DNA of 64,000 nucleotides, taken from contig NC_058337.1 in assembly GCF_905475395.1 (NCBI RefSeq), positions 62,888,368-62,952,367 of the forward strand. Direction: 5' to 3'. This document shows positions 3,850-38,597 of the stretch, piece after piece; the stretch's first letter is position 1; each line of letters opens with the position of its first letter. Under the pieces are notes generated by a model. It saw only the letters and a program-made list of their open reading frames with translations, was not told where the DNA came from and searched no databases. A program made the position numbers and the translations under genes. The DNA is from Chrysoperla carnea. Its lineage: Eukaryota; Arthropoda; Insecta; Neuroptera; Chrysopidae.

Positions 3850-4435
3850 TTATTAATAAAATTTTATTGATTTATAAACACGCCTATCATATAGTTTTTC
3901 TATCGAAAAGTGTTCATAGCTATTTTTAAATAAATTAATTTTAATCAATTTTTTTTTATTACAATGTTTTGAAGGCAAGCCTATATTATTATTTTCGCAA
4001 TTAAATTATCTTTCTTCTGATACCAATTTCGATTGGTTAACAGGTCGATGTAGTTACCTATATTGACTTACCTGTTCATATGATATGAACAGATCTACAC
4101 CGATCTGTTAACCAATCAAAATTGTATCTGAAGAAAGATAATTTAAATATGAAAATAATGCTATAGACGGTCCTGCAATTAACTATTCTTGGAAAAAATT
4201 GATTAAAATTAATTTAATTAAAAAAATAATCCATAAAAAGTTTTTTATTATATTTCCTTTTCTTTTTTAATTTTGTTTTTAGAATTTTTGTTTTGCTCGG
4301 ATCCACGAGTCTACCTGCAAAGTTTCAGCTCGATTGGATCACGGGAAAAGGCAGACAAGCAGACAAATAGATAAGCAGAGAAGCAGAGCCTACGAGTTAA
4401 AATAGTTATAGACGTGTTTATCAATCAATCTATTC
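3850..4435. mobile_element. Foldback (hairpin) element, imperfect
   Basis: The two halves are inverted copies of each other about a centre near 4076. The inner arms share TTCTGATAC and GATTGGTTAACAG. Middle arms share AATTAATTTTAATCAATTTTT at 3925-3955 and its complement at 4192-4215. The outermost arms (AAACACGCCTAT near 3880, ATAGACGTGTTTAT near 4408) also match. The right half carries an extra unpaired segment (about 4255-4400), so the element seems to have taken an insertion. It encodes nothing visible. It fits a non-autonomous hairpin DNA transposon; no target duplication was certain. Confidence 0.65.
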
Positions 4436-5574: not shown

Positions 5575-5740
5575 AAAAAGTGAGGTCGAGTTCGTAAATG
5601 AGCAACATAGGTCAATTAGGTCTTGGGTCCTATAAACCGTTAGAGATAGAACAAAAGTTTAAATATAAAAAAATCCCTTATAAAAGTCCCTTATAAAAAA
5701 ATAACAACTTTTGTTTGAAACATTTTTTCGTAAACATAAC
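5575..5740 (-). repeat. Dispersed repeat family 1, left part (split copy)
   Basis: This carries family words shared with copies at 19.0, 20.9, 32.6, 52.4, 54.7 and 56.9 kb: TTCGTAAATGAGCAACATAGG, CCGTTAGAGATAGAACAAAAG and GAAACATTTTTTCGTAAACAT. The copy is interrupted after CGTAAACATAAC by the Penelope insertion and resumes at 7385. Minus is defined by the orientation of the 56.7-kb copy. Confidence 0.85.
5730..5740 (+). repeat. Target-site duplication, left copy (11 bp)
   Basis: GTAAACATAAC here recurs at 7385-7395 on the other side of the Penelope palindrome. In uninterrupted copies of the host repeat (for example 21.1 kb) the corresponding sequence occurs once. That is what an 11-bp target duplication would produce. 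Confidence 0.75.
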
Positions 5741-5833
5741 TAATATAATATTATCGAAGATAATAAATGAGAACTCTAGGATATGTCGAAATAAATTTCG
5801 ATTTTTGCCCCAATTCCTAGATCAGTTTTTTGT

Positions 5834-5884
5834 ATTTTTAAAATACGTATTTTCGACTACCAAGTAGTCATCATCAGTAAGAAT
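5834..5884 (-). ncRNA. Hammerhead-ribozyme-like motif (left arm)
   Basis: This is the mirror copy of the motif at 7291-7341, read on the minus strand, with the same core and stems. It lies near the outer 3' end of the left Penelope copy. See the right-arm entry for the structure and its deviations. Confidence 0.5.
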
Positions 5885-6178
5885 TAGCTAGTGAATGTTA
5901 CTCTTTGCTAATTTGGTGGCGGACTGCACACTGTTACATTCGTGTTTTTACAATTTATACTGTTCACAGTATCTGTCAAATTGTATTGTCAGTGGCGCTA
6001 GCCAATCAACTGCCATCAGTTGACTAGTTTGGCCAATGAGCATGATACTTGTGCGCAGGCCCATTCGAGTATTTTTTGACGTTTAAAATAATAAATTACA
6101 AATCTAACCTAAATTAAAAAACTATAAATAAATCATAAAAATAAATAATCCTTTATTTTTATAACGTATTGACAATTT

Positions 6179-6595
6179 TTAGAAATTCAACCTTGATTTT
6201 GCAATTTTTATTAAATCCGAATTTGGAATAGGTCCTTTGTCCAAGTTCATTGCTTCATTACCCATCTTTTGAATGAAGATGCTTTCATAAGCGTCTAATT
6301 CGCAAGGATTGGGTACTGATTTTAAGAGCTTAAGGTTTGATTTGTCGATTTTGTGGTCGTTTTCGATAACGTGAGCGGCTACACATGATTTTTCAAATCT
6401 TCCATATTTTAAATGGCCCATATGTTCTTTGAATCTTGTGATGATTTGTCTTCTACTTTGACCTACATACTTCTTCGAACAATTTTGACATCCAATGCAA
6501 TATATTCCCGATTGTTGTTCCTTGTTGATTTTATCTTTGGGATTTCCAAGTAATTGTTTTAATTTTGTTCGACTAATGGGTGATGGGTTCGACAC
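6179..6595 (-). pseudogene. GIY-YIG endonuclease end of Penelope-like ORF (left copy)
   Basis: This 138-codon open frame is the C-terminal part of a Penelope-like element polyprotein. The GIY-YIG nuclease signature is visible: SGIYCIGCQNC, then KKYVGQSRRQIITRF and KEHMGHL, followed by SCVAAHVIENDH and a conserved E in YESIFIQKMG. In this family the domain nicks target DNA for retrotransposition. The upstream reverse transcriptase is missing, because the frame begins at the palindrome centre. The first few residues come from the junction, so it is a 5'-truncated remnant and not a full gene. The coding stretch is intact from there to its stop at 6179-6181. It is identical, apart from the junction residues, to the copy on the opposite strand. 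Confidence 0.85.
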
Positions 6596-6996
6596 CCATT
6601 AGTCGAACAAAATTAAAACAATTACTTGGAAATCCCAAAGATAAAATCAACAAGGAACAACAATCGGGAATATATTGCATTGGATGTCAAAATTGTTCGA
6701 AGAAGTATGTAGGTCAAAGTAGAAGACAAATCATCACAAGATTCAAAGAACATATGGGCCATTTAAAATATGGAAGATTTGAAAAATCATGTGTAGCCGC
6801 TCACGTTATCGAAAACGACCACAAAATCGACAAATCAAACCTTAAGCTCTTAAAATCAGTACCCAATCCTTGCGAATTAGACGCTTATGAAAGCATCTTC
6901 ATTCAAAAGATGGGTAATGAAGCAATGAACTTGGACAAAGGACCTATTCCAAATTCGGATTTAATAAAAATTGCAAAATCAAGGTTGAATTTCTAA
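6580..6996 (+). pseudogene. GIY-YIG endonuclease end of Penelope-like ORF (right copy)
   Basis: This is the plus-strand twin of the left-arm fragment. It has the same GIY-YIG motif order (SGIYCIGC, KKYVGQS, TRFKEHM), the same downstream AAHVIENDH and the same stop. It diverges head to head from its twin, and the two frames overlap across the centre. The reverse transcriptase part is absent. Both copies start at the same point (ISRTKLKQ), which suggests one duplication or snap-back event rather than two independent truncations. Because the frame has no internal stop or shift, the insertion is probably recent. A transcript reading through both arms would form a hairpin of nearly 800 bp. Confidence 0.85.
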
Positions 6997-7290
6997 AAAT
7001 TGTCAATACGTTATAAAAATAAAGGATTATTTATTTTTATGATTTATTTATAGTTTTTTAATTTAGGTTAGATTTGTAATTTATTATTTTAAACGTCAAA
7101 AAATACTCGAATGGGCCTGCGCACAAGTATCATGCTCATTGGCCAAACTAGTCAACTGATGGCAGTTGATTGGCTAGCGCCACTGACAATACAATTTGAC
7201 AGATACTGTGAACAGTATAAATTGTAAAAACACGAATGTAACAGTGTGCAGTCCGCCACCAAATTAGCAAAGAGTAACATTCACTAGCTA

Positions 7291-7341
7291 ATTCTTACTG
7301 ATGATGACTACTTGGTAGTCGAAAATACGTATTTTAAAAAT
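7291..7341 (+). ncRNA. Hammerhead-ribozyme-like motif (right arm)
   Basis: The core CTGATGA (7298-7304) is followed by a perfect 6-bp stem II (GACTAC/GTAGTC, loop TTG) and then GAAA (7321-7324). Stem III is the self-complementary ATACGTAT (7325-7332). It is followed by TT as the expected U-H dinucleotide. Stem I pairs ATTCTTA (7291-7297) with TAAAAAT (7335-7341), six of seven bases. Hammerhead ribozymes are established components of Penelope-like element terminal regions. Two deviations are one extra U between the core and stem II, and a stem III with no loop. The latter would only work as a dimer, as proposed for other short-stem hammerheads. Activity is untested. Confidence 0.55.
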
Positions 7342-7384
7342 ACAAAAAACTGATCTAGGAATTGGGGCAAAAATCGAAATTTAT

Positions 7385-7551
7385 GTAAACATAACTGTTT
7401 ACCCGTGAGAGCGCAAATTAGGCGTAAATTGTAGTATTATATGCGTATATCAGCTATATGTGTGTGACATGTAGGTATGTGTAATGTGACAGAGTATACA
7501 TGATATTTCAACAATTAACTCAGTCAATTGTTTGTTTTCACTTGTTTTATA
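7385..7551 (-). repeat. Dispersed repeat family 1, right part (split copy), with right target duplication
   Basis: This starts with the right copy of the 11-bp duplication (7385-7395). It continues with the family words TGTTTACCCGTGAGAGCGC and TTCAACAATTAACTCAGTC and ends at TTTCACTTGTTTT. It is the continuation of the copy at 5575-5740. Confidence 0.85.
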
Positions 7552-8144
7552 AAAATTTTATTGAAAATTAAAAAAAAGTGATTTGAAAGTTATATCAAAT
7601 ATTGCACTAAAAACGAAATACAAGGGACAATGTAAAATGAAAGCCAAAATCACGCTCTAAAAAGTATGGAACAAGAAAGATATTATTATATGAAATTGTT
7701 GTTATTATTAAAACCATCATTACAGTCGGGAGATCGTTCTCTGGAAAACTTTTCAGTCTTAGATCGATCGACTGTAGTGACGATTTTACTTAGAACAACA
7801 ATTTCAGATGATAATATTTTCTTGTTAATAAAAATTTTGAAAAATTTGTGCCAAAGCGTAAGTAGTAAATATTCTACAATTTTATACAAAATATTATTAT
7901 TTCATGAAATTGGAGACATTTTTGAATAAAAACATGCAACATAAATAATAGTATAATTTTTTTTAATTTTTAATAATTTTTTTTACTTTTTAACCAATAA
8001 AACTTGCTTAAAAAGGAGTTTTCAACTGATCAAATTAGCCAAATTACTGCCTCATAACAAGTTACTATAGTAACTATGTTAATGTTTTATTTATCTCATG
8101 GTGGTGTTAATGTTATGGTTATCAATGGTGGGTGACTTTTACCT

Positions 8145-9599: not shown

Positions 9600-10020
9600 G
9601 TACACTGACTTCAAAAAAAAAAACTATTCCAAAACAATTTAATATGCACTAAAAAGTAAAAAACTAATTGCCTAATCAAATATTTTTAGAATTCTCCTAA
9701 GTAAAATGAAATTTAAAATTAAAGAAATATTGCAATTTTTGGAGTCGGTGTCAGCCAAGGAAGCAACTGTGGCAGAACACATTAACTTGGTTGACACCGA
9801 CTGCAAAAAATAGCAATAATTGTAACTACATTATATATTATCGTAATAATTTGAATGACTTTTAAGTAGTCTTATATTTTACTTAGAAGAACTCAAAAAT
9901 ATATTTTAATTATTGTTTGTTATTCAATAGAATACGAAATTATTTTTTTACTTTTTAGTGCATATTAATTTGTTTTGGAATAGTTTTTTTTTTTTTTTTT
10001 TTTGAAGACTTTTTTTGTAC
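9600..10020. mobile_element. Hairpin MITE-like foldback element
   Basis: Inverted arms of about 185 bp are present. The outer words (TTCAAAAAAAAAAACTATTCC, then CAATTTAATATGCACTAAAA) on the left recur inverted at 9950-10010. Middle words (CTAAGTAAAAT) recur inverted near 9883. The GC-richer centre is itself a hairpin: GTCGGTGTCAGCCAAG at 9744 and CTTGGTTGACACCGAC at 9785. No protein is encoded. It fits a non-autonomous DNA transposon that folds end to end. Confidence 0.75.
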
Positions 10021-20597: not shown

Positions 20598-20766
20598 AAT
20601 TTTTATACCATGTATATATGAAATATACATAGTATATTAAGTTTTTATACCATGTATATATGAAATATACATAGTATATTAAGTTTTTATACCATGTATA
20701 TATGAAATATACATAGTATATTAAGTTTTTATACCATGTATATATGAAATATACATAGTATATTAA
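20598..20766 (-). repeat. 42-bp tandem array at end of repeat family 1
   Basis: Four near-identical 42-bp units contain TATACCATGTATATATGAAA and TACATAGTATATTAAG. The unit is the normal terminal sequence of repeat family 1, present once in other copies and multiplied here. It happens to stay open in one minus frame (a 14-residue repeat), which is not evidence of a gene. Confidence 0.9.
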
Positions 20767-21284
20767 GTTTAGTCCAAAGTTTGTAACGCTTAAAAATAAT
20801 GATGCTAGGAAAAAAATTTTGTCATAGGTGTTCATAGAATCACCTAATTAGTCCATTTCCGGTTGTCCGTCCGTCCGTCCGTCCGTCTGTGGACACGATA
20901 ACTCAAAAACGAAAAAAGATATCGAGCTGAAATTTTTACAGCGTACTCAGGACGTAAAAAGTGAGGTCAAGTTCGTAAATGAGCATCATAGGTCAATTGG
21001 GTCTTGGGTCCGTAGGACCCATCTTGTAAACCGTTAGAGATAGAACAAAAAATGTTCCTTATCAAAAATTAAACAACTTTTGTTTGAAAAATTTTTTCGT
21101 AAACATGACTGTTTACCCGTGAGGGCGCCAATTAGGCGGAAATTTTATAATATGTACTATACTTGATTATCAGTTATGTATGTGTCACATGTTTGTATGT
21201 GTAATGTGATAAAGAAATCAACACTGACTATACATGGTATTTCAACAATTAACTCATTCAATTGTTTGTTTTCACTTGTTTTTG
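20767..21284 (-). repeat. Dispersed repeat family 1, body of copy
   Basis: This continues from the tandem terminal array. It has a (GTCC)n run near 20867-20885, ACACGATAACTCAAAAACGA, GTTCGTAAATGAGCATCATA, ACTGTTTACCCGTGAGGGCG and a closing TTCAACAATTAACTCATTCA. It is the best-preserved minus-oriented copy and shows the uninterrupted state of the site that Penelope hit at 5.7 kb. Confidence 0.85.
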
Positions 21285-24423: not shown

Positions 24424-24625
24424 CCCTGGTGGAAAAAATATTTGAAAAAAGAATAAGTCTTAATAAGTCTTAGGAAACTCTGAAAAAGTCTCAGAAACTT
24501 TAAAAAAGTATTAAGAACTCTGAATAACTCTGAATTAGACTAGTCCGAAAACGTTGAGAAATTCAAAGTTCCTAAGACTTTTTCAGAATTTCTTATTCTT
24601 TCTTCAAATATTTTTTCCACCAGGG
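24424..24625. mobile_element. MITE with 34-bp terminal inverted repeats
   Basis: The terminal repeat begins CCCTGGTGGAAAAAATATTT on the left and is perfectly mirrored at 24592-24625 for most of its length (AAATATTTTTTCCACCAGGG). The 202-bp interior has loose AAGTCT/AGACTT repeats and no coding frame. Target duplication is unclear. Confidence 0.85.
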
Positions 24626-31500: not shown

Positions 31501-34500
31501 TTATTTAATTAATATTTAAATTTAAAATTTTGTAATGGTCGAAATAAAAACGTTACCCCATATATAAAACGGCTTTATTCCAATTAGGACGTTTATCAAC
31601 AAAATCACTAATCTGCTGCACGAAATCAATAAACAAGCAACAACAAGGTGCTTCGCAAACAATCACTAAAAATCCTGCAAGCATTTGCCACATACCACCT
31701 AACAGACAACTAACATCACCAAGAAGTATTCCAAAACAATTGTATAATCCAAATAAAATTGCAACTGAAAGTAAAAAATTTTGTAAAGATTAAGTTAGTA
31801 CAAAAAGCAAAGAAATGTTCATCAAATTAGTCAACTAATTTCAAAGTATATAAAATTTAGACACAAATTTTGAAATTCAAATTTTGGTGGCAAATTGAAT
31901 AATTAGCAAATAATCAAGCAGAACATTTGAACATAAGAAGAGCATTGGATATAGTTTTGCTTTTATTTATATAATTATACAAATAAATAGGAAATTAATA
32001 AATATTGTGATATACTATGGTAGGTTAGGTTAGGTTAGACTTGGCTGTCCTGGGATGGGACACACTTAGACCATAGGGTTCGTTGTGATACCGAAAAAGG
32101 GTTGGCCCACCCCCGAAGAACAGCAGGAGTGCCTTGACGACGACGGACTTAAGTCGGAGAGGTCATCAAAGAGAGCCTGACTCAAGTAAGTCAATCTCCT
32201 CATGACAAGAGCTGGGTAGTGACAGATGAGACATGTCTCCTTCTCCTCACCACTGTGACAGCGCCTGCAGCAGTCGTGATAGACTGCCAGGCCCATGCGT
32301 TCAGCATGCCTGCCGCCCAACCAGTGTCCTATAATAGCCGCAACAACTTTATACCATGGTAGAAACAATTATAAAATAATAAATTTTAATGTAATATTTG
32401 CTATTTCATAAAAGTTTCAACCGCGTGTAAATGCTACACGTACAAATTTTTTTTCAACTAGTATAGCTCGAGCTATGAAAATCTATGTCTTCGTCACGTC
32501 CAAATATTTACATGTTTTCAAAAGCTTTTTTGTTATTAAAATTTTGTTGTTAATCGGTTTTTAAACACTGTATATATGTAATATCCGAAGTTTGTAACGC
32601 TTAAAAAGGTTTAACAAAATTTGTGTATAGTCATCTAAGCCCATTTCCGGCTGTCCGCCCGTCTGTCTGTGAACACGATAACTTAAAAACGAAAAGAGAT
32701 AAAACTTAAAAATGTTTTCGTAAACATCACTGTTTAACCTTGTGAAACATTCTTGTAAAACGAAAACAAATTCCAGAAAATACATTCGAAAATTTTCGAA
32801 AACCAAATAAATAGCGGCCTTAAGAAGTTTTCGGTTGGATTGTTCAACATAGGGGACCTGGTATATCAAATTAAAGGGAAGAAATTGAGCTTTCTCATGA
32901 ATACAATTTTTTTGCTTTTCGCTGAATTTTTTACTAGTTGAAGAAAATTTGCAATAAAATGGTCTCTTACAAATTAATTCCCATGAAAATGCAGTTATTA
33001 AAAATATAAAAAATATTTCTGCCAGGATAAACTCTGGCACACCTAGCTCATATTGTACCTTTCGTTAAATAGGATTGATTCATATGCCAAATTTATGTTT
33101 ACGAAAAAATGTTTCAAACAAAAGTTATTTATTTTTTATAAGGAACATTTTTTACATTTATGCTTTTCTTCTACCTCTAACGGTTTACAAGACTCAATTG
33201 ACTTTTTACGTCCTGAGTACGCTATATAAATTTCAGTTTGAAATCTCTTTTGGTGTTTAGGTGTTTTTATGAACACCTATTCACAAATTTTGTTCGTAGC
33301 ATCAATATTTTTAAGGGTTACAAACTTGTGACTAAACTTAGTATACCTTCATATAAGTTACATATATACAGGCTATTAAAATAGAGATTTTCATTTAAGA
33401 TATTTCAAGTGATGTTCTCGAGTTCTTCGACTGTTCTCATGCTTTTTGAAAACTCTGTATATTCTGTATTAAATGGAGCTACCTAAAAACGCGAAGACAT
33501 ATTCAAGCAGCTTTAAATTTTTTTCTGTATAAGAAACATTATATTATGGTTAGTAGCTATGAATATTTTGACATAATGTACAGCTTAAAATTTTATGTTT
33601 TTATGTGAATCTTGTCATGAAAAAGAATATCTAAAGGGGGACCTGTTGAATTGTCTTCATATAAGTTTTGTCAATAAGAAAAATCCAAAGTGGGGTGGAA
33701 ATTAGAGCTTTTCAAACCATATATTTTGTCATAATCCGATGACATTTTATAAATATTTATAAGACTACAAACAATTATTTTTTAAAATTTTGGACAAATT
33801 TTTTTGCCATAAATTGTGTATAAAAACGAAATAAAGAAAATAGTTTTTAATTGTTACTTTTATAAAAAAATATCGAGTGCCTCATGCCAGAAGGGGGAAT
33901 CCGCCAAAATGAGTAAGTAAGTTTTACTAATTTCTTTTAATGTTCTTGTGAAAGCACTCGTATATTAGATTTAATTTGTATTAACTTTTTATTGCTTCGG
34001 AAGTAAAGATTATATCTAATTCCAATGCAATTTATTTATTTACGCGTTATGGTTCTTCGTATGCTTTTTTGGATAATATTAGCTACCTAGCAGTTAATCC
34101 ACTCGCTTCTCTGGTCAACTGCAATTTTAAATACAAAGAATATTGCGTTATAAAATTTTATTTCATTTGCCATCACTTATCCCCGCTAATTTCGTTGGTT
34201 TTAATTTAGTGGTGTCCTAAATTTTTTAAATAAAATATAGCCCATGTTACCCGCTGACATTTCTATAGGTATATCCAATAGACACACATATACACCTATA
34301 TTAATGTATCCAAAAATTTGTATCCGCTTTTTTACCACCTTAGGAGTAAAATTTTCAAAAATCCTTCCTTAGATTCAACTATAATGTCAAAAAGCCCAAC
34401 ATGCAAATTTGCACTGGCCGAACAGATAAGTGTATAAACAACAACTGGAGTGATTGATTCTTTTTTTTTTTTTTTTTTATTAGTAATATTTATTTTTATG

Positions 34501-37500
34501 AACAGAAATTGGATACCACTTTTTATATTTAAAATAAGAATAGGAGAACATAGTGTTCATGAGAGGAAAGAAAAAATTAAAAAATTTAGTAGATATTTTA
34601 TAGAACCGTAACTATTAGTAGTTCTGTATCAAATATTCATTCTTTAGTAAAAACATGCTTTATACTGTGTTTCCTTTAGAAATGTGTTAAAAAAATTCAA
34701 GTTTCTATCTTCAAAGGTTTTTTTTTCCTCGAGTTTTTCTGCCGGTTTAAACCTTATATACATATCTTTATAACCATTGTTTCAAATTTTTCGTATACGA
34801 TTAAATATAGTTTCTGATTTTCGATTTATAAAGAAGTATTCCAAACTGCTGCTTGTGAGAAGAATAATTAGAATTCTCTTTTGTAATTATTATAAACCAC
34901 ATGGAGTTAAAAAAAACTTTATTAACATGACATTATAGCAAACGTTGATCTATATTCATCTATAAAATTATTTACACAAAATTTCATCCACTTGTTAAGC
35001 CTTTAGAGGATGAATTTCCAAAAATCCTTTCTTAGTTCACCCTGATGTCATTTTAGGAACTTGTGTACAAACTTTGATGCTTAATAACCCAGTGGTTTAA
35101 ACTCTGCGTTGATCGATCAGTCAGTTACTTCTTTTATATAGATAGAATAGAATAGAATAAATTATTGTACGTAAAACCCGCTTACTACAATGATTCGTAC
35201 AATAGGATACAATATTTAAAAGAATTAAAAGTTTATGTTTTCTCCTACATTGCCGGTTCACAAAATTTATTTTTTATTTGTAATCACTTGTATTTGTGAA
35301 TAGTTTATCCACATGCATTTTATTACTATTACTCCAAGGAGGTGTCCTATTAGTTCACTACTTTTTTTGCACGAAAACATTTTATTTAAGTCTTAAGTAC
35401 GTGCGTGCCATTAGTTCGCTACTAATATAATTACTTATATATGCCGTTTTCGAACGAGTAAATTATTTATTAAAAGTCATACGCTCCAAGATTTCAATAC
35501 AATATCTCAGTATTTTAAGCTAAATAAAATTTAGACTCAATGTTTTCCTTAAAATATGGAATGTACTGGCAAAATTTCTCAAAATCGGTAAATTGGCAGA
35601 TACGCTCTACTGGCATGAAATCTTCGATATCTTTATATGCTCAAAATTTATTACGTATTAAGTAAAATAATCAATAGATAAGATAATTGCTATTTAAAAC
35701 AATTATTTGATAATGGGGACCCTTTGATAATAGCAATAAAATATAGTATGTAAAAATTTTAGATGATTCTGGTTAATTATTATTTTTTACAGGAAAATTG
35801 TAAACGCATATTAACATTACAAAAAATTACCAAAATATTTTCAGACATTTAGTAAGTATGGCAAAAATTGACTTTTATTTTATCCATAATACTGAAGTAT
35901 CATTCGTTAACTTCACACAAAAAATGTCTTTGGGATAGAAAAATTGTAGGGTGAGTGCTACATAGAGAACGTATAAGGAATGAAAATTCACATTTCCATT
36001 GGATGGATAGACTAAAATTTTTTAAGTTTAAGTCCACGGTATACCGTATACGGTCTATTTAAACGCGGTATGAAATTATTTTTGGCCTTTTATACCGTGG
36101 GGCCCTTATACCGTGCAGTGGAGCACAAGTCACAGTAGTTTACTTCCTAGTAGACATAGGGATAGTTCGACCACATAGGTACTAACTTTCCCACCAACTA
36201 ACTTCGGTACTAAGTACAGCTACGGACATAAATGCCGTCTTCTTTTGCCAACTGACAGTGTAGAGAAATAAGACGACATTTCTGACCGTAGCTGTACTTA
36301 GTACCGAAGTTAGTTGGTGGGAAAGTTAGTACCTATGTGGTCGAACTATCCCTATGTCTACTAGGAAGTAAACTACTGTGACTTGTGCTCCACTGCACAA
36401 GTCATAGTAAAGTACTGTGACTTGTACTCCACTCCACAAGTAAATGTAAAATACTGTGACTTGTGCTCCACTCCACAAGTCATAGTAAAATACTGTGACT
36501 TGTGCTCCACTCCACAAGTCATAGTAAAATACTGTAACTTGTGCTCCACTCCACAAGTCATAGTAAAATACTGTGACTTGTATCAGTTGTACATTATGTT
36601 GTACTTTATTCATCTACGAGGATGTAGTTTTTTTTGTGGAAGATTATTCAATTTTTATTATCAATTCGAAGCTCCTTACTTACTTTATTCAAATTAATTA
36701 GTATAAAAGCATACGAGGCTCCACAAGTTAAATATATAGATGTACGATGTGCGGTTAAAAACCTCGCACGGCTTGAAAATCTCTGTATAAACGCATACCG
36801 TGTGTTATAGCTTACCGTGTGAGGTATAGAACCATTCACGGCTTAATAATCCCAATATAAACGCATACCGTGTGTTATAGCTTACCGTGTGCGGTTAAAA
36901 ACCTCGCACGGCTTGAAAATCTCTGTATAAACGCATACCGTGTGTTATAGCTTACCGTGTGCGGTTAAAAACCACGCACGGCAAAAAATCTCTGTAGAAT
37001 ACGCTTTCCCATCTGTATTGTGTATACCGTGGACGAGAGTATACCGCACACGGTATGTTACATTTCTGTAGAATACGCTTTCCCATCTGTATAATGTATA
37101 CCGTGGACGAGAGTATACCGCACACGGTATGTTACATTTCTGTAGAATACGCTTTCCCATCTGTATAATGTATACCGTGGACGAGAGTATACCGCACACG
37201 GTATGTTACATTTCTGTAGAATACGCTTTCCCATCTGTATAATGTATACCGTGGACGAGAGTATACCGCACACGGTATGTTACATTTCTGTAGAATACGC
37301 TTTCCCATCTGTATAATGTATACCGTGGACGAGAGTATACCGCACACGGTATATTTCATTTGTTTCAAATAATCCTTCCAATCTATATTGTGTATACCGT
37401 GGACGAGACTATACCGCACACGGTATAAGGGCTCGACGGCATAAAGAGTATACCGTGAAAAAGTATACCGTGCACGGTATAAGGGCCCCACGGTATAAAA

Positions 37501-38597
37501 GGGCAAAAATAATTTCATACCGCGTCTAAATAGACCGTATACGGTATACCGTGGACGGTCTAGACCGTAGACGGTATTGTGCGGATAGCCACACCGATAA
37601 TATGGTTATTTTTCAATAAAACCAATCTTAAAATCTCATTATATACAATGATATCATTTTCCAATTCTTTAAAATATTTATTAACATTTAAATTTAATTT
37701 TGAAATACTAAATTATTTCCATCAATGTTGTTTAAATTATATGATTCGATTCGATTTTTATTTGTAGCAGCATGTCAAAAAACTAACCTAGTAAAAATAC
37801 CGAATATTTTAATTCTTTGCCAAACAGACACGACGCGAATTTCAAATCTAAATTTACGGTATAATTTAAAAATCTCATTTAATAATATGAATAAAAAATA
37901 AAAATGAACCATATGGTCAGTAAATTAGAATACAAAGGCAAAAAACCGTAAATTTTCCTAAAAAGTTAACAACCATCTATGAATTTTCAAATGTGATTAA
38001 ATTATTCTGACCGGAAAAATTTCGTTAACCATTTCAGAAACATGATCGCTTTAATTTTCGAGATATAATTAATGTCTTATTTCCAAAAATTAAATTTACT
38101 TCTTTAATTTAAAAACGCGATCTACAGTTTAATTTAAATAGTTAAATAGTACATAAAGGGAGCTCAATTAACTGAATAATGAATAAATATTTAAACAAAG
38201 AAATAATTACAATCGGATTAAAAATCATTAGTCAGCTGACGAATGTAAACACAAATCACTAGTAATTGTAACAGATATATTATATTCAACCATATTAATT
38301 ATGAAAGAAACCTAATTAAAAATCAATAACCATAAATTTATATTCAGATTTAATCAATTTAATATTAAATTTCAAACCAAAAATTGAAAAACTAAAACTA
38401 AATACATACATCCACTTCCGACTGTTCCCAACCCCCGACCAGCATATTTCATCCACCAAGGAGTATCATCTTGTGGCTGATTTTCTTGACCCGGACGGGT
38501 CATTAACGACGCAATTTTCTCTTGAAATGACTACAAATAAATAATATAAGTCAAATAAATGAAATTAATTATGTTTTAAACATTAAATACATACCAT
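28355..38597 (-). CDS. fwe: Calcium channel flower (fwe), five coding exons
   Basis: Four-pass membrane protein of synaptic vesicles and plasma membrane, known in Drosophila for vesicle endocytosis and as a fitness mark in cell competition. Coding exons on the minus strand are 38597-38595 (ATG only), 38530-38410, 31764-31557, 31489-31382, then either 31193-31064 or 28535-28355. All junctions have GT/AG and keep frame. The products are 189 or 206 residues, against about 194 in Drosophila. The N-terminus is [11 protein letters not shown], then [15 protein letters not shown]. Hydrophobic segments lie near residues 42-60, 62-80, 107-127 and 128-145. E79 in VIVCEAPCC matches the acidic residue reported to matter for calcium passage. 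The signature [14 protein letters not shown] is intact. The 6.6-kb second intron holds a LINE fragment and a palindrome complex. Identity is confident; exon ends are inferred. Confidence 0.93.
28536..31063. other. Space between alternative flower terminal exons
   Basis: Intron for the distal isoform and 3' UTR/flank for the proximal one. A 67-codon plus-strand frame at 29169-29372 ([14 protein letters not shown] to [12 protein letters not shown]) has better codon-like composition than its surroundings and a lysine/arginine-rich product. It could be a decayed retrocopy of an unidentified gene, but I recognise no family. A second frame at 29958-30188 is weaker. Neither is called. Confidence 0.4.
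31064..31193 (-). CDS. fwe: flower proximal alternative terminal exon
   Basis: The acceptor (TGTATAG) is followed by one base completing K147, then 42 residues: [16 protein letters not shown], a glycine-rich linker, and the tail [13 protein letters not shown] before TAA. It is much less AT-rich than the surroundings and has clear codon structure. The tail TTLMED resembles STLVEN in the distal exon, which suggests an ancient exon duplication. Retention of this exon gives the 189-residue form. The 3' untranslated part includes a GCGCGCGCGCG run at 31027-31037. Confidence 0.85.
32014..32362 (-). mobile_element. 5'-truncated R1-type LINE with TTAGG tail and target duplication
   Basis: The insertion (about 32024-32352) is flanked by near-identical ACTATGGTAG (32014-32023) and ACCATGGTAG (32353-32362), fitting a 10-bp target duplication with one change. 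Read on the minus strand it codes for the C-terminal end of an R1/jockey-like reverse transcriptase polyprotein. The visible order is [14 protein letters not shown], a Cys/His cluster ([15 protein letters not shown]), then [18 protein letters not shown]. Its 3' end carries about three and a half TTAGG units (32022-32038, as AGGTTAGGTT...) instead of poly(A). The GC content is far above the surroundings. It lies in flower intron 2 in the same orientation as the gene. Confidence 0.8.
32066..32350 (-). pseudogene. C-terminal fragment of LINE polyprotein
   Basis: An open stretch of about 95 codons without its upstream reverse transcriptase. The terminal zinc-cluster region (HDCCRRCH ... CLICHYPAL) followed by RRL and FDDLSDL matches the end of R1-clade LINE proteins. 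The last part ([15 protein letters not shown]) reads to a normal stop, although some spacing in the Cys/His region looks shortened. Any leading methionine is simply host sequence past the truncation point. Confidence 0.75.
32560..32815 (-). repeat. Dispersed repeat family 1 fragment
   Basis: Carries AAGTTTGTAACGCTTAAAAA, the GTCCGCCCGTCTGTCTGTG run and ACACGATAACTTAAAAACGA. It then jumps to AAACATCACTGTTTAACC, so internal parts are lost. Confidence 0.8.
33090..33372 (+). repeat. Dispersed repeat family 1 fragment, opposite orientation
   Basis: Carries TTTACGAAAAAATGTTTCAAA, AACGGTTTACAAGACTCAAT, GAACACCTATTCACAAATTT and TTAGTATACCTTCATATAAG. It is inverted relative to the fragment 280 bp upstream, so the two can pair. 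Confidence 0.8.
36113..36398. repeat. Long inverted repeat (133-bp arms)
   Basis: Left arm 36113-36245, right arm 36266-36398, centre 36255.5. The outer 113 bp match without a visible mismatch (for example GTGCAGTGGAGCACAAGTCA and its complement at the right end, TAGTTCGACCACATAGG inside). The innermost 20 bp have a few mismatches around a 20-bp loop. Confidence 0.92.
36380..36583. repeat. 39-bp tandem array, about five units
   Basis: GTCATAG-type unit starts lie at 36401, 36440, 36479, 36518 and 36557, an exact 39-bp period. Each unit contains ACTTGTG...CACAAGT, so each can form its own hairpin. The unit sequence is the same as the end of the adjacent long inverted repeat arm, so the array looks like expansion of that end. 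Because 39 is a multiple of 3, open frames persist on both strands; these are not genes. Confidence 0.92.
36751..36991. repeat. 70-bp tandem array, about three and a half units
   Basis: Units start at 36751, 36821, 36891 and 36961, an exact 70-bp period. Shared words are GCGGTTAAAAACC, CGCACGGCTTGAAAATCTC and CGCATACCGTGTGTTATAGC. The second unit is the most diverged. Confidence 0.92.
36992..37425. repeat. 74-bp tandem array, five units plus one diverged
   Basis: Units start at 36992, 37066, 37140, 37214 and 37288, an exact 74-bp period, and a decayed sixth follows. Each has CTGTAGAATACGCTTTCCCA, TATACCGTGGACGAGAGTAT and ACCGCACACGGTATGTTACA. ACCGCACACGGT within the unit is nearly self-complementary. 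Units 2-5 look almost identical, suggesting recent expansion. Confidence 0.93.
37553..38409. other. flower intron 2, right part
   Basis: AT-rich intron sequence leading to the GTATGT donor of exon 2 at 38409/38408. Just past the palindrome complex (37557-37576) another TAGACCGTAGACGGTA word remains. Nothing else supported. Confidence 0.5.

What the first reader, a model, noticed from the sequence alone, without database searches (positions are those of the whole stretch)
36030..37552. Nested palindrome plus three different tandem arrays inside a flower intron
An outer inverted repeat (about 80-90 bp) encloses an inner 133-bp-arm hairpin and arrays of exact 39-, 70- and 74-bp period, all built around TACCGT/ACGGTA words. 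The layering (palindrome within palindrome, arrays derived from palindrome ends) does not match any standard element I know. It could be a foldback transposon under satellite expansion, or a structured intronic element that could fold in the flower pre-mRNA.
Basis: partly seen in the sequence, partly recalled or inferred. Interest (0 to 1): 0.75.

Follow-up and report, generated by a model that had tools for sequence, protein, structure and literature searches.

The report
Truncated foldback transposon in flower intron
The strange nested palindrome with three tandem arrays is one damaged copy of a jumping-gene family (a Mutator-type foldback transposon) that occurs many times in the same genome, so it is a real mobile element of a known kind rather than something unexplained.

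Summary
In detail: 86-bp outer arms (84/86), a 133-bp-arm inner hairpin (129/133), and arrays of period 39, 70 and 74 lie in a 6.6-kb intron of flower. The window's own genome could be searched and holds a dispersed family: 237 matches in the 40 candidates scored of 156, and 96 copies of the family's terminus against 0 for a reversed control. Of 22 two-ended copies, 14 carry an exact 9-bp target-site duplication; cross-pairing their flanks gives 0 of 462. Twelve of the 22 carry 74-bp units in both inverted ends. This is a non-autonomous foldback element of Mutator type. The window copy keeps its right half to 37596; its left half lacks the 40-bp tip and 1,077 bp, joined at a 5-bp GTGCA present at both break points. 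That exact joint occurs once in the genome. Hence 'palindrome within palindrome': the inner hairpin is the element's centre. A MULE-encoding element in the same genome shares the layout: 9-bp duplication, 4-nt tip, GTGGCTAT, tandem-repeat termini. Closest known: Tm1 (PMC3169594) and Tetris (PMC4079207).

The parts
36032..36117 (-). left outer arm: what is left of the left terminal inverted repeat (84/86 identical to the right arm); the 40-bp terminus that should lie to its left is absent
36113..36117 (.). GTGCA joint between outer arm and central palindrome; GTGCA occurs only twice in the right half, exactly at the two corresponding break points; the exact joint occurs once in the genome
36113..36398 (.). 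central palindrome (133-nt arms, 20-nt loop); 240 of its 286 nt recur at 96.7-99.2% in L010, L012 and L062, there as a palindrome with shorter arms (87 nt)
36367..36581 (+). 39-bp tandem array; the unit tested (36484-36522) folds into a hairpin better than all 100 shuffles; the first unit is the end of the palindrome
36582..36742 (+). A+T-rich spacer, shared with other copies
36743..36990 (+). 70-bp tandem array
36991..37426 (+). 74-bp tandem array, six units, each with the dyad ACCGCACACGGT
37427..37470 (+). block B between array and arm, partly like the 74-bp unit
37471..37556 (+). right outer arm
37557..37596 (+). right terminus of the element, ending GGATAGCCAC + variable 4-nt tip ACCG
37597..37605 (.). 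ATAATATGG, right copy of the presumed 9-bp target-site duplication; no exact left copy in 34000-36060 (one 1-mismatch word at 35551)
31765..38409 (-). flower intron that holds the element (853 bp from the donor, 4,267 bp from the acceptor, measured from the outer arms)

Best explanation
The feature is one copy of a non-autonomous foldback DNA transposon of Mutator (MULE) type. The best-kept half reads, from the end inwards: variable 4-nt tip, GTGGCTATCCGCACAATACCGTCTACGGTCTAGACC, outer arm, block B, 74-bp array, 70-bp array, spacer, 39-bp array, central palindrome; this order is whole in the window's right half and in one half of L012, L015 and L062. SHOWN: a multi-copy family, a defined terminus, 9-bp duplications, 74-bp units in both inverted ends of 12 of 22 two-ended copies, no coding capacity found in the copies examined. 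SHOWN for the window copy: right half of 1,341 bp complete; left half only 224 bp, lacking the 40-bp tip and 1,077 bp between two GTGCA words. INFERRED: a MULE transposase acting in trans moved the family (one in this genome shares tip layout, GTGGCTAT and 9-bp duplications); after insertion the left half was rearranged, by deletion or by inverted templated repair at the GTGCA microhomology; array numbers change by slippage or unequal exchange; dyads repeated in the arrays may be secondary transposase binding sites, as shown for Galileo. The window copy, with one terminus, is probably immobile and neutral in flower.
For: Own-genome search: 237 matches in 40 scored of 156 candidates. Terminus GTGGCTATCCGCACAATACCG at 96 places with up to 2 mismatches, control 0. 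22 two-ended copies, 79-2,675 bp; 14 with exact 9-bp duplication, A+T-rich; 0 of 462 cross-pairs exact. Module maps of 53 loci: 74-bp units inside both inverted ends in 12 of 22 two-ended copies (scripted count). Terminal inverted repeat of 656 and 670 bp at 96% in L023. Joint unique in the genome and GTGCA at both break points. Other MULE: 736-aa open frame with PF21056 2.3e-10, PF10551 4.8e-6 (27.4 bits, cut-off 27.6), PF03101 7.1e-5 (23.9 bits, cut-off 28.1); three of three copies examined have exact 9-bp duplications, a 4-nt tip, then GTGGCTAT, and 33-bp arrays at both ends.
Against: 8 of 22 two-ended copies lack an exact duplication (2 to 9 mismatches), and 10 of 22 lack the 74-bp units in both inverted ends. 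The window copy has no left terminus and no exact left duplication, so its own insertion cannot be proved by it. Only 22 of the first 40 loci keep any terminus. No transposase was found in the family: no pair of termini is farther apart than 2.7 kb, and the seven loci scanned for frames show only repetitive or short ones. In the three other copies that keep the centre, the palindrome is shorter and only one side runs into the 39-bp array, so a fully symmetric ancestor is an idealisation. Beyond GTGGCTAT the MULE's termini did not match the window element (no hit at E up to 1).
Confidence: 0.9

Rival explanations
1. Two nested transposons: the inner palindrome with its 39-bp array is a separate hairpin element inserted into an outer TACCGT-rich element.
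For: The two parts have different vocabularies: no TACCGT or ACGGTA in 36118-36742; abrupt joint at 36117/36118.
Against: The order 74-70-spacer-39-centre recurs in other copies (L012, L015, L062, and L010 without block B); the window's joint is private to it. No target-site duplication around the inner part was looked for beyond reading the joint. An old insertion in the family's founder is not excluded.
Confidence: 0.08
2. Helentron-associated non-autonomous element (HINE/DINE-1 type): palindromic subterminal repeats, central tandem repeats, no duplication.
For: Before the genome was searchable this fitted: perfect 12-bp palindrome ACGGTATACCGT at both ends, extra sequence beyond the right arm only, central repeats.
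Against: 14 of 22 two-ended copies have exact 9-bp target-site duplications; no target-site modification was found for HINEs (PMC4067079, passages).
Confidence: 0.02
3. A functional structured element of the flower pre-mRNA: the intron hairpin serves as ADAR or Dicer substrate or in splicing.
For: On the flower strand 36100-36420 folds at -252.4 kcal/mol, z -33.6, 0 of 100 shuffles as good.
Against: The element is one of many dispersed copies, and its present form includes a joint found nowhere else in the genome; the six Rfam matches are all below gathering scores.
Confidence: 0.05
4. Assembly artefact (collapsed or expanded arrays, chimeric palindrome).
For: Long identical inverted arms can arise as read chimeras (recalled); not testable here without reads.
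Against: The same modules occur at dozens of independent loci, many with target-site duplications; the palindrome has a 20-nt loop and four mismatches.
Confidence: 0.02

Closest known systems
Tm1, Mutator/Foldback family of root-knot nematodes (PMC3169594; passages read)
   Same: 9-bp target-site duplications; short asymmetric motifs outside the inverted repeat at each end; termini made of tandem repeats in variable number; non-coding copies plus a single MULE-encoding kind
   Different: Tm1 termini: 7-bp end motifs, about 14-bp repeats, GA-rich motif D; here 4-nt tips, GTGGCTAT, and three arrays of 74, 70 and 39 bp; sequence relation not tested
Tetris, foldback transposon of Drosophila virilis (PMC4079207; passages read)
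   Same: non-coding foldback with outer domain, tandem-repeat domain and inner domain in each terminus, 8-10 bp duplications, repeats expanding satellite-like; [quoted passage not shown]
   Different: one kind of repeat (TIR-220) per terminus there; three different arrays and a central palindrome here; sequence relation not tested
Galileo, P superfamily foldback (PMC3688188, PMC3573991; passages read)
   Same: long internally repetitive termini; transposase binding sites shown in the tandem repeats; structural dynamism of the termini
   Different: 7-bp duplications and P-type THAP transposase there; 9-bp duplications and a MULE-type candidate here
The MULE with 33-bp arrays in the same genome (L073-L075)
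   Same: 9-bp duplication, 4-nt tip, GTGGCTAT, termini built from tandem repeats whose unit carries a dyad
   Different: codes for a transposase (736 aa in L050); terminus differs after the first eight bases

Membership tests
Mutator-like elements (MULE) | 8-10 bp, usually 9-bp target-site duplication | tested here: met
   14 of 22 two-ended copies exact, 0 of 462 cross-pairs
Mutator-like elements (MULE) | terminal or subterminal inverted repeats | tested here: met
   termini in convergent pairs
Mutator-like elements (MULE) | family member that encodes a MULE transposase | tested here: not met
   no terminus pair above 2,675 bp; no significant match of the 736-aa MULE protein in the 53 loci (best E 0.49). 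A MULE with the same terminal octamer exists. The family is therefore called MULE-type by duplication and termini, not by a transposase of its own
Foldback elements | long composite terminal inverted repeats with tandem repeats in varying number | tested here: met
   74-bp units in both inverted ends in 12 of 22 two-ended copies; terminal repeat of about 660 bp at 96% in L023
Tm1 | Tm1 terminal motifs A1, A2, B and 14-bp motif C | not tested
   only the printed motifs were seen; no search was run with them
Tetris | TIR-220 repeat sequence | not tested
   no Tetris sequence on hand
Helentron-associated HINE/DINE-1 | no target-site modification | tested here: not met
   9-bp duplications
Galileo / P superfamily | 7-bp duplication | tested here: not met
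   9-bp duplications; 7 bp stated for Galileo in PMC3573991 (passage)
Known structured RNA (Rfam) | match above gathering score | tested here: not met
   best 64.3 bits against 90 (MIR7807); all 6 listed matches below their gathering scores

The most novel reading that the evidence does not exclude
This genome houses a lineage of Mutator-type elements whose termini are built, in at least two families, as tandem arrays of dyad-carrying units (33 bp in the coding MULE; 74, 70 and 39 bp here), because arrays multiply transposase binding sites; the same selection for more sites drives satellite birth (34 units of 74 bp in L020, 30 units of 39 bp in L072), and the hairpins in turn break and rebuild the elements.
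Probability: 0.3. Interest if true: 0.6.

Novelty: new member of a known kind. Interest (0 to 1): 0.4.

Why it matters
It turns an odd-looking intron structure into an ordinary but well-resolved case: a family in which terminus, target-site duplication, three minisatellites and a candidate transposase can all be read in one genome. Such families are a source of satellites and of rearrangements, and the terminal octamer shared with a coding MULE makes it testable whether tandem terminal repeats are binding-site amplifiers. For flower itself it probably means little beyond a very stable hairpin in an intron.

Tried and rejected
Searches outside the own genome led nowhere: four exact patterns in viral contigs, 0 hits; genome contigs 0 hits and one 20-mer in Paenibacillus rigui, taken as chance; blastn of 36030-37580 against phages and plasmids, no match. 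The window holds no other copy at E up to 1. Text search for CGGTATACCG gave 7 papers, none by its title about a transposon; by their listings, the paper searches showed no description of this element. I do not claim that the family is undescribed: no repeat library was on hand.

Rejected on evidence: Helentron/HINE, which I considered seriously, fell to the 9-bp duplications. A stem-loop beyond the right arm was not significant (z -0.9 to -1.4; the longer stretch 37520-37620, which includes the arm's dyads, gave z -3.9 and -2.9). A first guess that base G in unit 1 of the 39-bp array was copied from the joint is refuted: L010, L012 and L062 carry it too. The duplication word for the window copy used coordinates two bases off; one search has the right ones. 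The palindrome finder gave only short hits for the 39-, 70- and 74-bp units because it allowed few mismatches and no loop; unit hairpins rest, where only the 39-bp unit folds better than all 100 shuffles (the 70- and 74-bp units do not). In one search the 70-bp unit did not match block B better than chance, and the 39-bp unit did not match the 74-bp unit, so the arrays are not all relatives of each other. PF10551 gave 14 hits; of the ten fetched, two (L050, L051) are the MULE used above; one of the rest (L058) was scanned and is bacterial.
Full report
OBSERVATION. The structure is there and far beyond chance. Outer arms 36032-36117 and 37471-37556 match at 84 of 86; the inner palindrome 36113-36398 has 133-nt arms with 129 matches, the first 113 perfect, and a 20-nt loop. 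Tandem arrays of 39, 70 and 74 bp follow each other. In 60 dinucleotide shuffles of the region no array appeared and the best inverted match had 35.6 bits, against 434 and 147 observed. The words TACCGT/ACGGTA are confined to the outer arm and the part from 36743 on; 36118-36742 has none. The element lies in a 6,645-bp intron of flower on the minus strand (exon match PF10233, 9.9e-18; splice sites by reading).

GENOME CONTEXT. The own-genome search, at first unreachable, was answered: the window is C1:62888368-62952367 of a 559-Mb genome in 337 contigs. The element found 237 matches in 40 scored of 156 candidates. I fetched 39 other loci and the window's own (L010-L049). Reading outward from the outer arm, many copies continue through GGTCTAGACCGTAGACGGTATTGTGCGGATAGCCAC and then become unique after about four more bases; 22 of the 40 loci, the window's included, hold at least one such terminus within 3 mismatches of a 21-mer. 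That is the true end of the element. In the window it is present on the right (37557-37596) and absent on the left.

TRANSPOSITION. The 21-mer GTGGCTATCCGCACAATACCG occurs 96 times in the genome (45 forward, 51 reverse, up to 2 mismatches), its reversed control 0 times. The 96 form 22 convergent pairs 79-2,675 bp long. After a 4-nt tip (in the first 40 loci mostly GCAA, CGGT, GGAA or CGAA), 14 of the 22 have an exact 9-bp direct repeat made almost only of A and T; of 462 cross-pairings of the same flanks none is exact and 2 are within one mismatch. The two tips differ in 12 of the 14, as the asymmetric end motifs of Tm1 do (PMC3169594, passages). The other 8 of 22 have 2 to 9 mismatches; I did not find out why. 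Nine base pairs is the usual length for Mutator-like elements.

ANATOMY. Module maps show that the arrays belong to the inverted ends: 12 of 22 two-ended copies have 74-bp units next to both termini in opposite orientation (L010, L023, L024, L029, L030, L032, L046, L047, L065, L066, L067, L069; scripted count); 10 do not. L023 has a terminal repeat of 656 and 670 bp at 96%. Array numbers go up to 34 (74-bp units, L020) and 30 (39-bp units, L072). Other copies are scrambled by internal inversions and by a further short palindromic repeat around GTATACCGTCTATACG. The whole order terminus - arm - B - 74 - 70 - spacer - 39 - centre is kept in the window's right half and in one half of L012, L015 and L062. 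The central palindrome recurs, by matches of 180 nt or more, in L010, L012 and L062 (3 of 52 other loci) at 96.7-99.2% over 240 of 286 nt: on one side it runs into the 39-bp array, on the other into different sequence. There its arms are 87 nt long (positions 47-133 of the window's 133). So the inner palindrome is the element's centre.

THE WINDOW COPY. Its right half, 36256-37596, is 1,341 bp long; its left half, 36032-36255, only 224 bp. The left lacks the 40-bp terminus and 1,077 bp between outer arm and centre. The word GTGCA occurs twice in the right half, precisely at the two places that are fused on the left. Within two mismatches the fused 24-mer is found at 7 places: exactly in the window copy alone, and with two mismatches at six places lying together at C2:17.23 Mb, which read like the 39-bp unit (not fetched). 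The palindrome's outermost 46 nt on the left are not shared by the three other centres. Two routes fit: deletion inside a symmetric left half, or repair that copied the right half in inverted form and jumped at GTGCA. I do not choose between them. The right flank ATAATATGG should be one target-site duplication; its exact partner is not within 34000-36060, so the left boundary was probably lost together with the tip.

PARTNER. I found no coding copy: in the seven loci scanned the longest frames are repetitive or short and the MULE protein has no significant match in the 53 loci (best E 0.49). The genome has a MULE (L050, 736 aa; PF21056 2.3e-10; PF10551 4.8e-6, just below its cut-off for this frame; PF03101 7.1e-5, below its cut-off). 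Its protein has 11 matches in the genome, one of them full length without stops. Three of three copies examined are flanked by exact 9-bp duplications, begin with a 4-nt tip and GTGGCTAT, and carry 33-bp arrays at both ends; the unit holds a 19-bp dyad. The family begins tip + GTGGCTATCC. A chance match of eight bases at that offset has probability 1.5e-5 (the comparison was made after seeing both). Further on the two termini do not match. That this transposase or a relative moves the family is inference. In Galileo the tandem terminal repeats do bind transposase (PMC3688188, passages), which is the model for the dyads here: ACCG(N0-8)CGGT occurs 13 times in the element against a mean of 0.25 in 300 shuffles, though tandem duplication accounts for about half of that number.

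RNA. The flower strand of 36100-36420 folds at -252.4 kcal/mol, z -33.6. The hairpin may attract ADAR or Dicer; nothing here tests it. Rfam matches stay below gathering scores.

VERDICT. A real mobile element of an ordinary kind in an unusual state: a family of Mutator-type foldback elements, new to me as far as these tools show, with one copy rearranged inside flower.

Noticed in passing
window 5742-7384: Insertion with a 12-bp duplication GTAAACATAACT (5730-5741 / 7385-7396) into a copy of an interspersed repeat; it is a near-perfect palindrome (arms 792 bp, 100% identical, about 10-nt loop), each arm with a 139-codon frame; the frame scanned (6577-6993) has a GIY-YIG domain (PF01541, 2.4e-5). 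Possibly Penelope-like (recalled)..
   Followed up: partly
window 3923-4224, 7670-7826, 9613-9994, 24424-24625: Further self-palindromic or inverted-repeat stretches; no match to this element.
   Followed up: no
window 5575, 7385, 18934, 20724, 33095, 43572, 52331, 54436, 56693 (starts): Interspersed repeat, up to about 500 bp, with pieces at these nine starts; the first two are halves of one copy split by the palindrome at 5742-7384.
   Followed up: no
window 20600-20770: 42-bp tandem array, 4.1 copies, 100% matches.
   Followed up: no
L052-L059 (C1:138.3-139.4 Mb): Short open frames with MULE-domain matches; the one scanned (L058) has bacterial-type transposases (PF00872 2.7e-67, PF01797 1.7e-45), so the end of C1 may hold bacterial DNA, by transfer or scaffolding.
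   Followed up: partly
own genome, contigs C1-C6: Family termini are uneven: 5.45 per 10 Mb on C6, 2.58 on C2 and C4, 1.17-1.18 on C3 and C5, 0.64 on C1.
   Followed up: no
C2:17228991-17237151: Six near-matches (2 mismatches) to the joint pattern, reading like the 39-bp unit, within 8 kb on one strand; perhaps a larger array of that unit.
   Followed up: no
L060 (C3:72971150-72974100): A family copy interrupted by about 1.16 kb of A+T-rich sequence that matches no module.
   Followed up: partly
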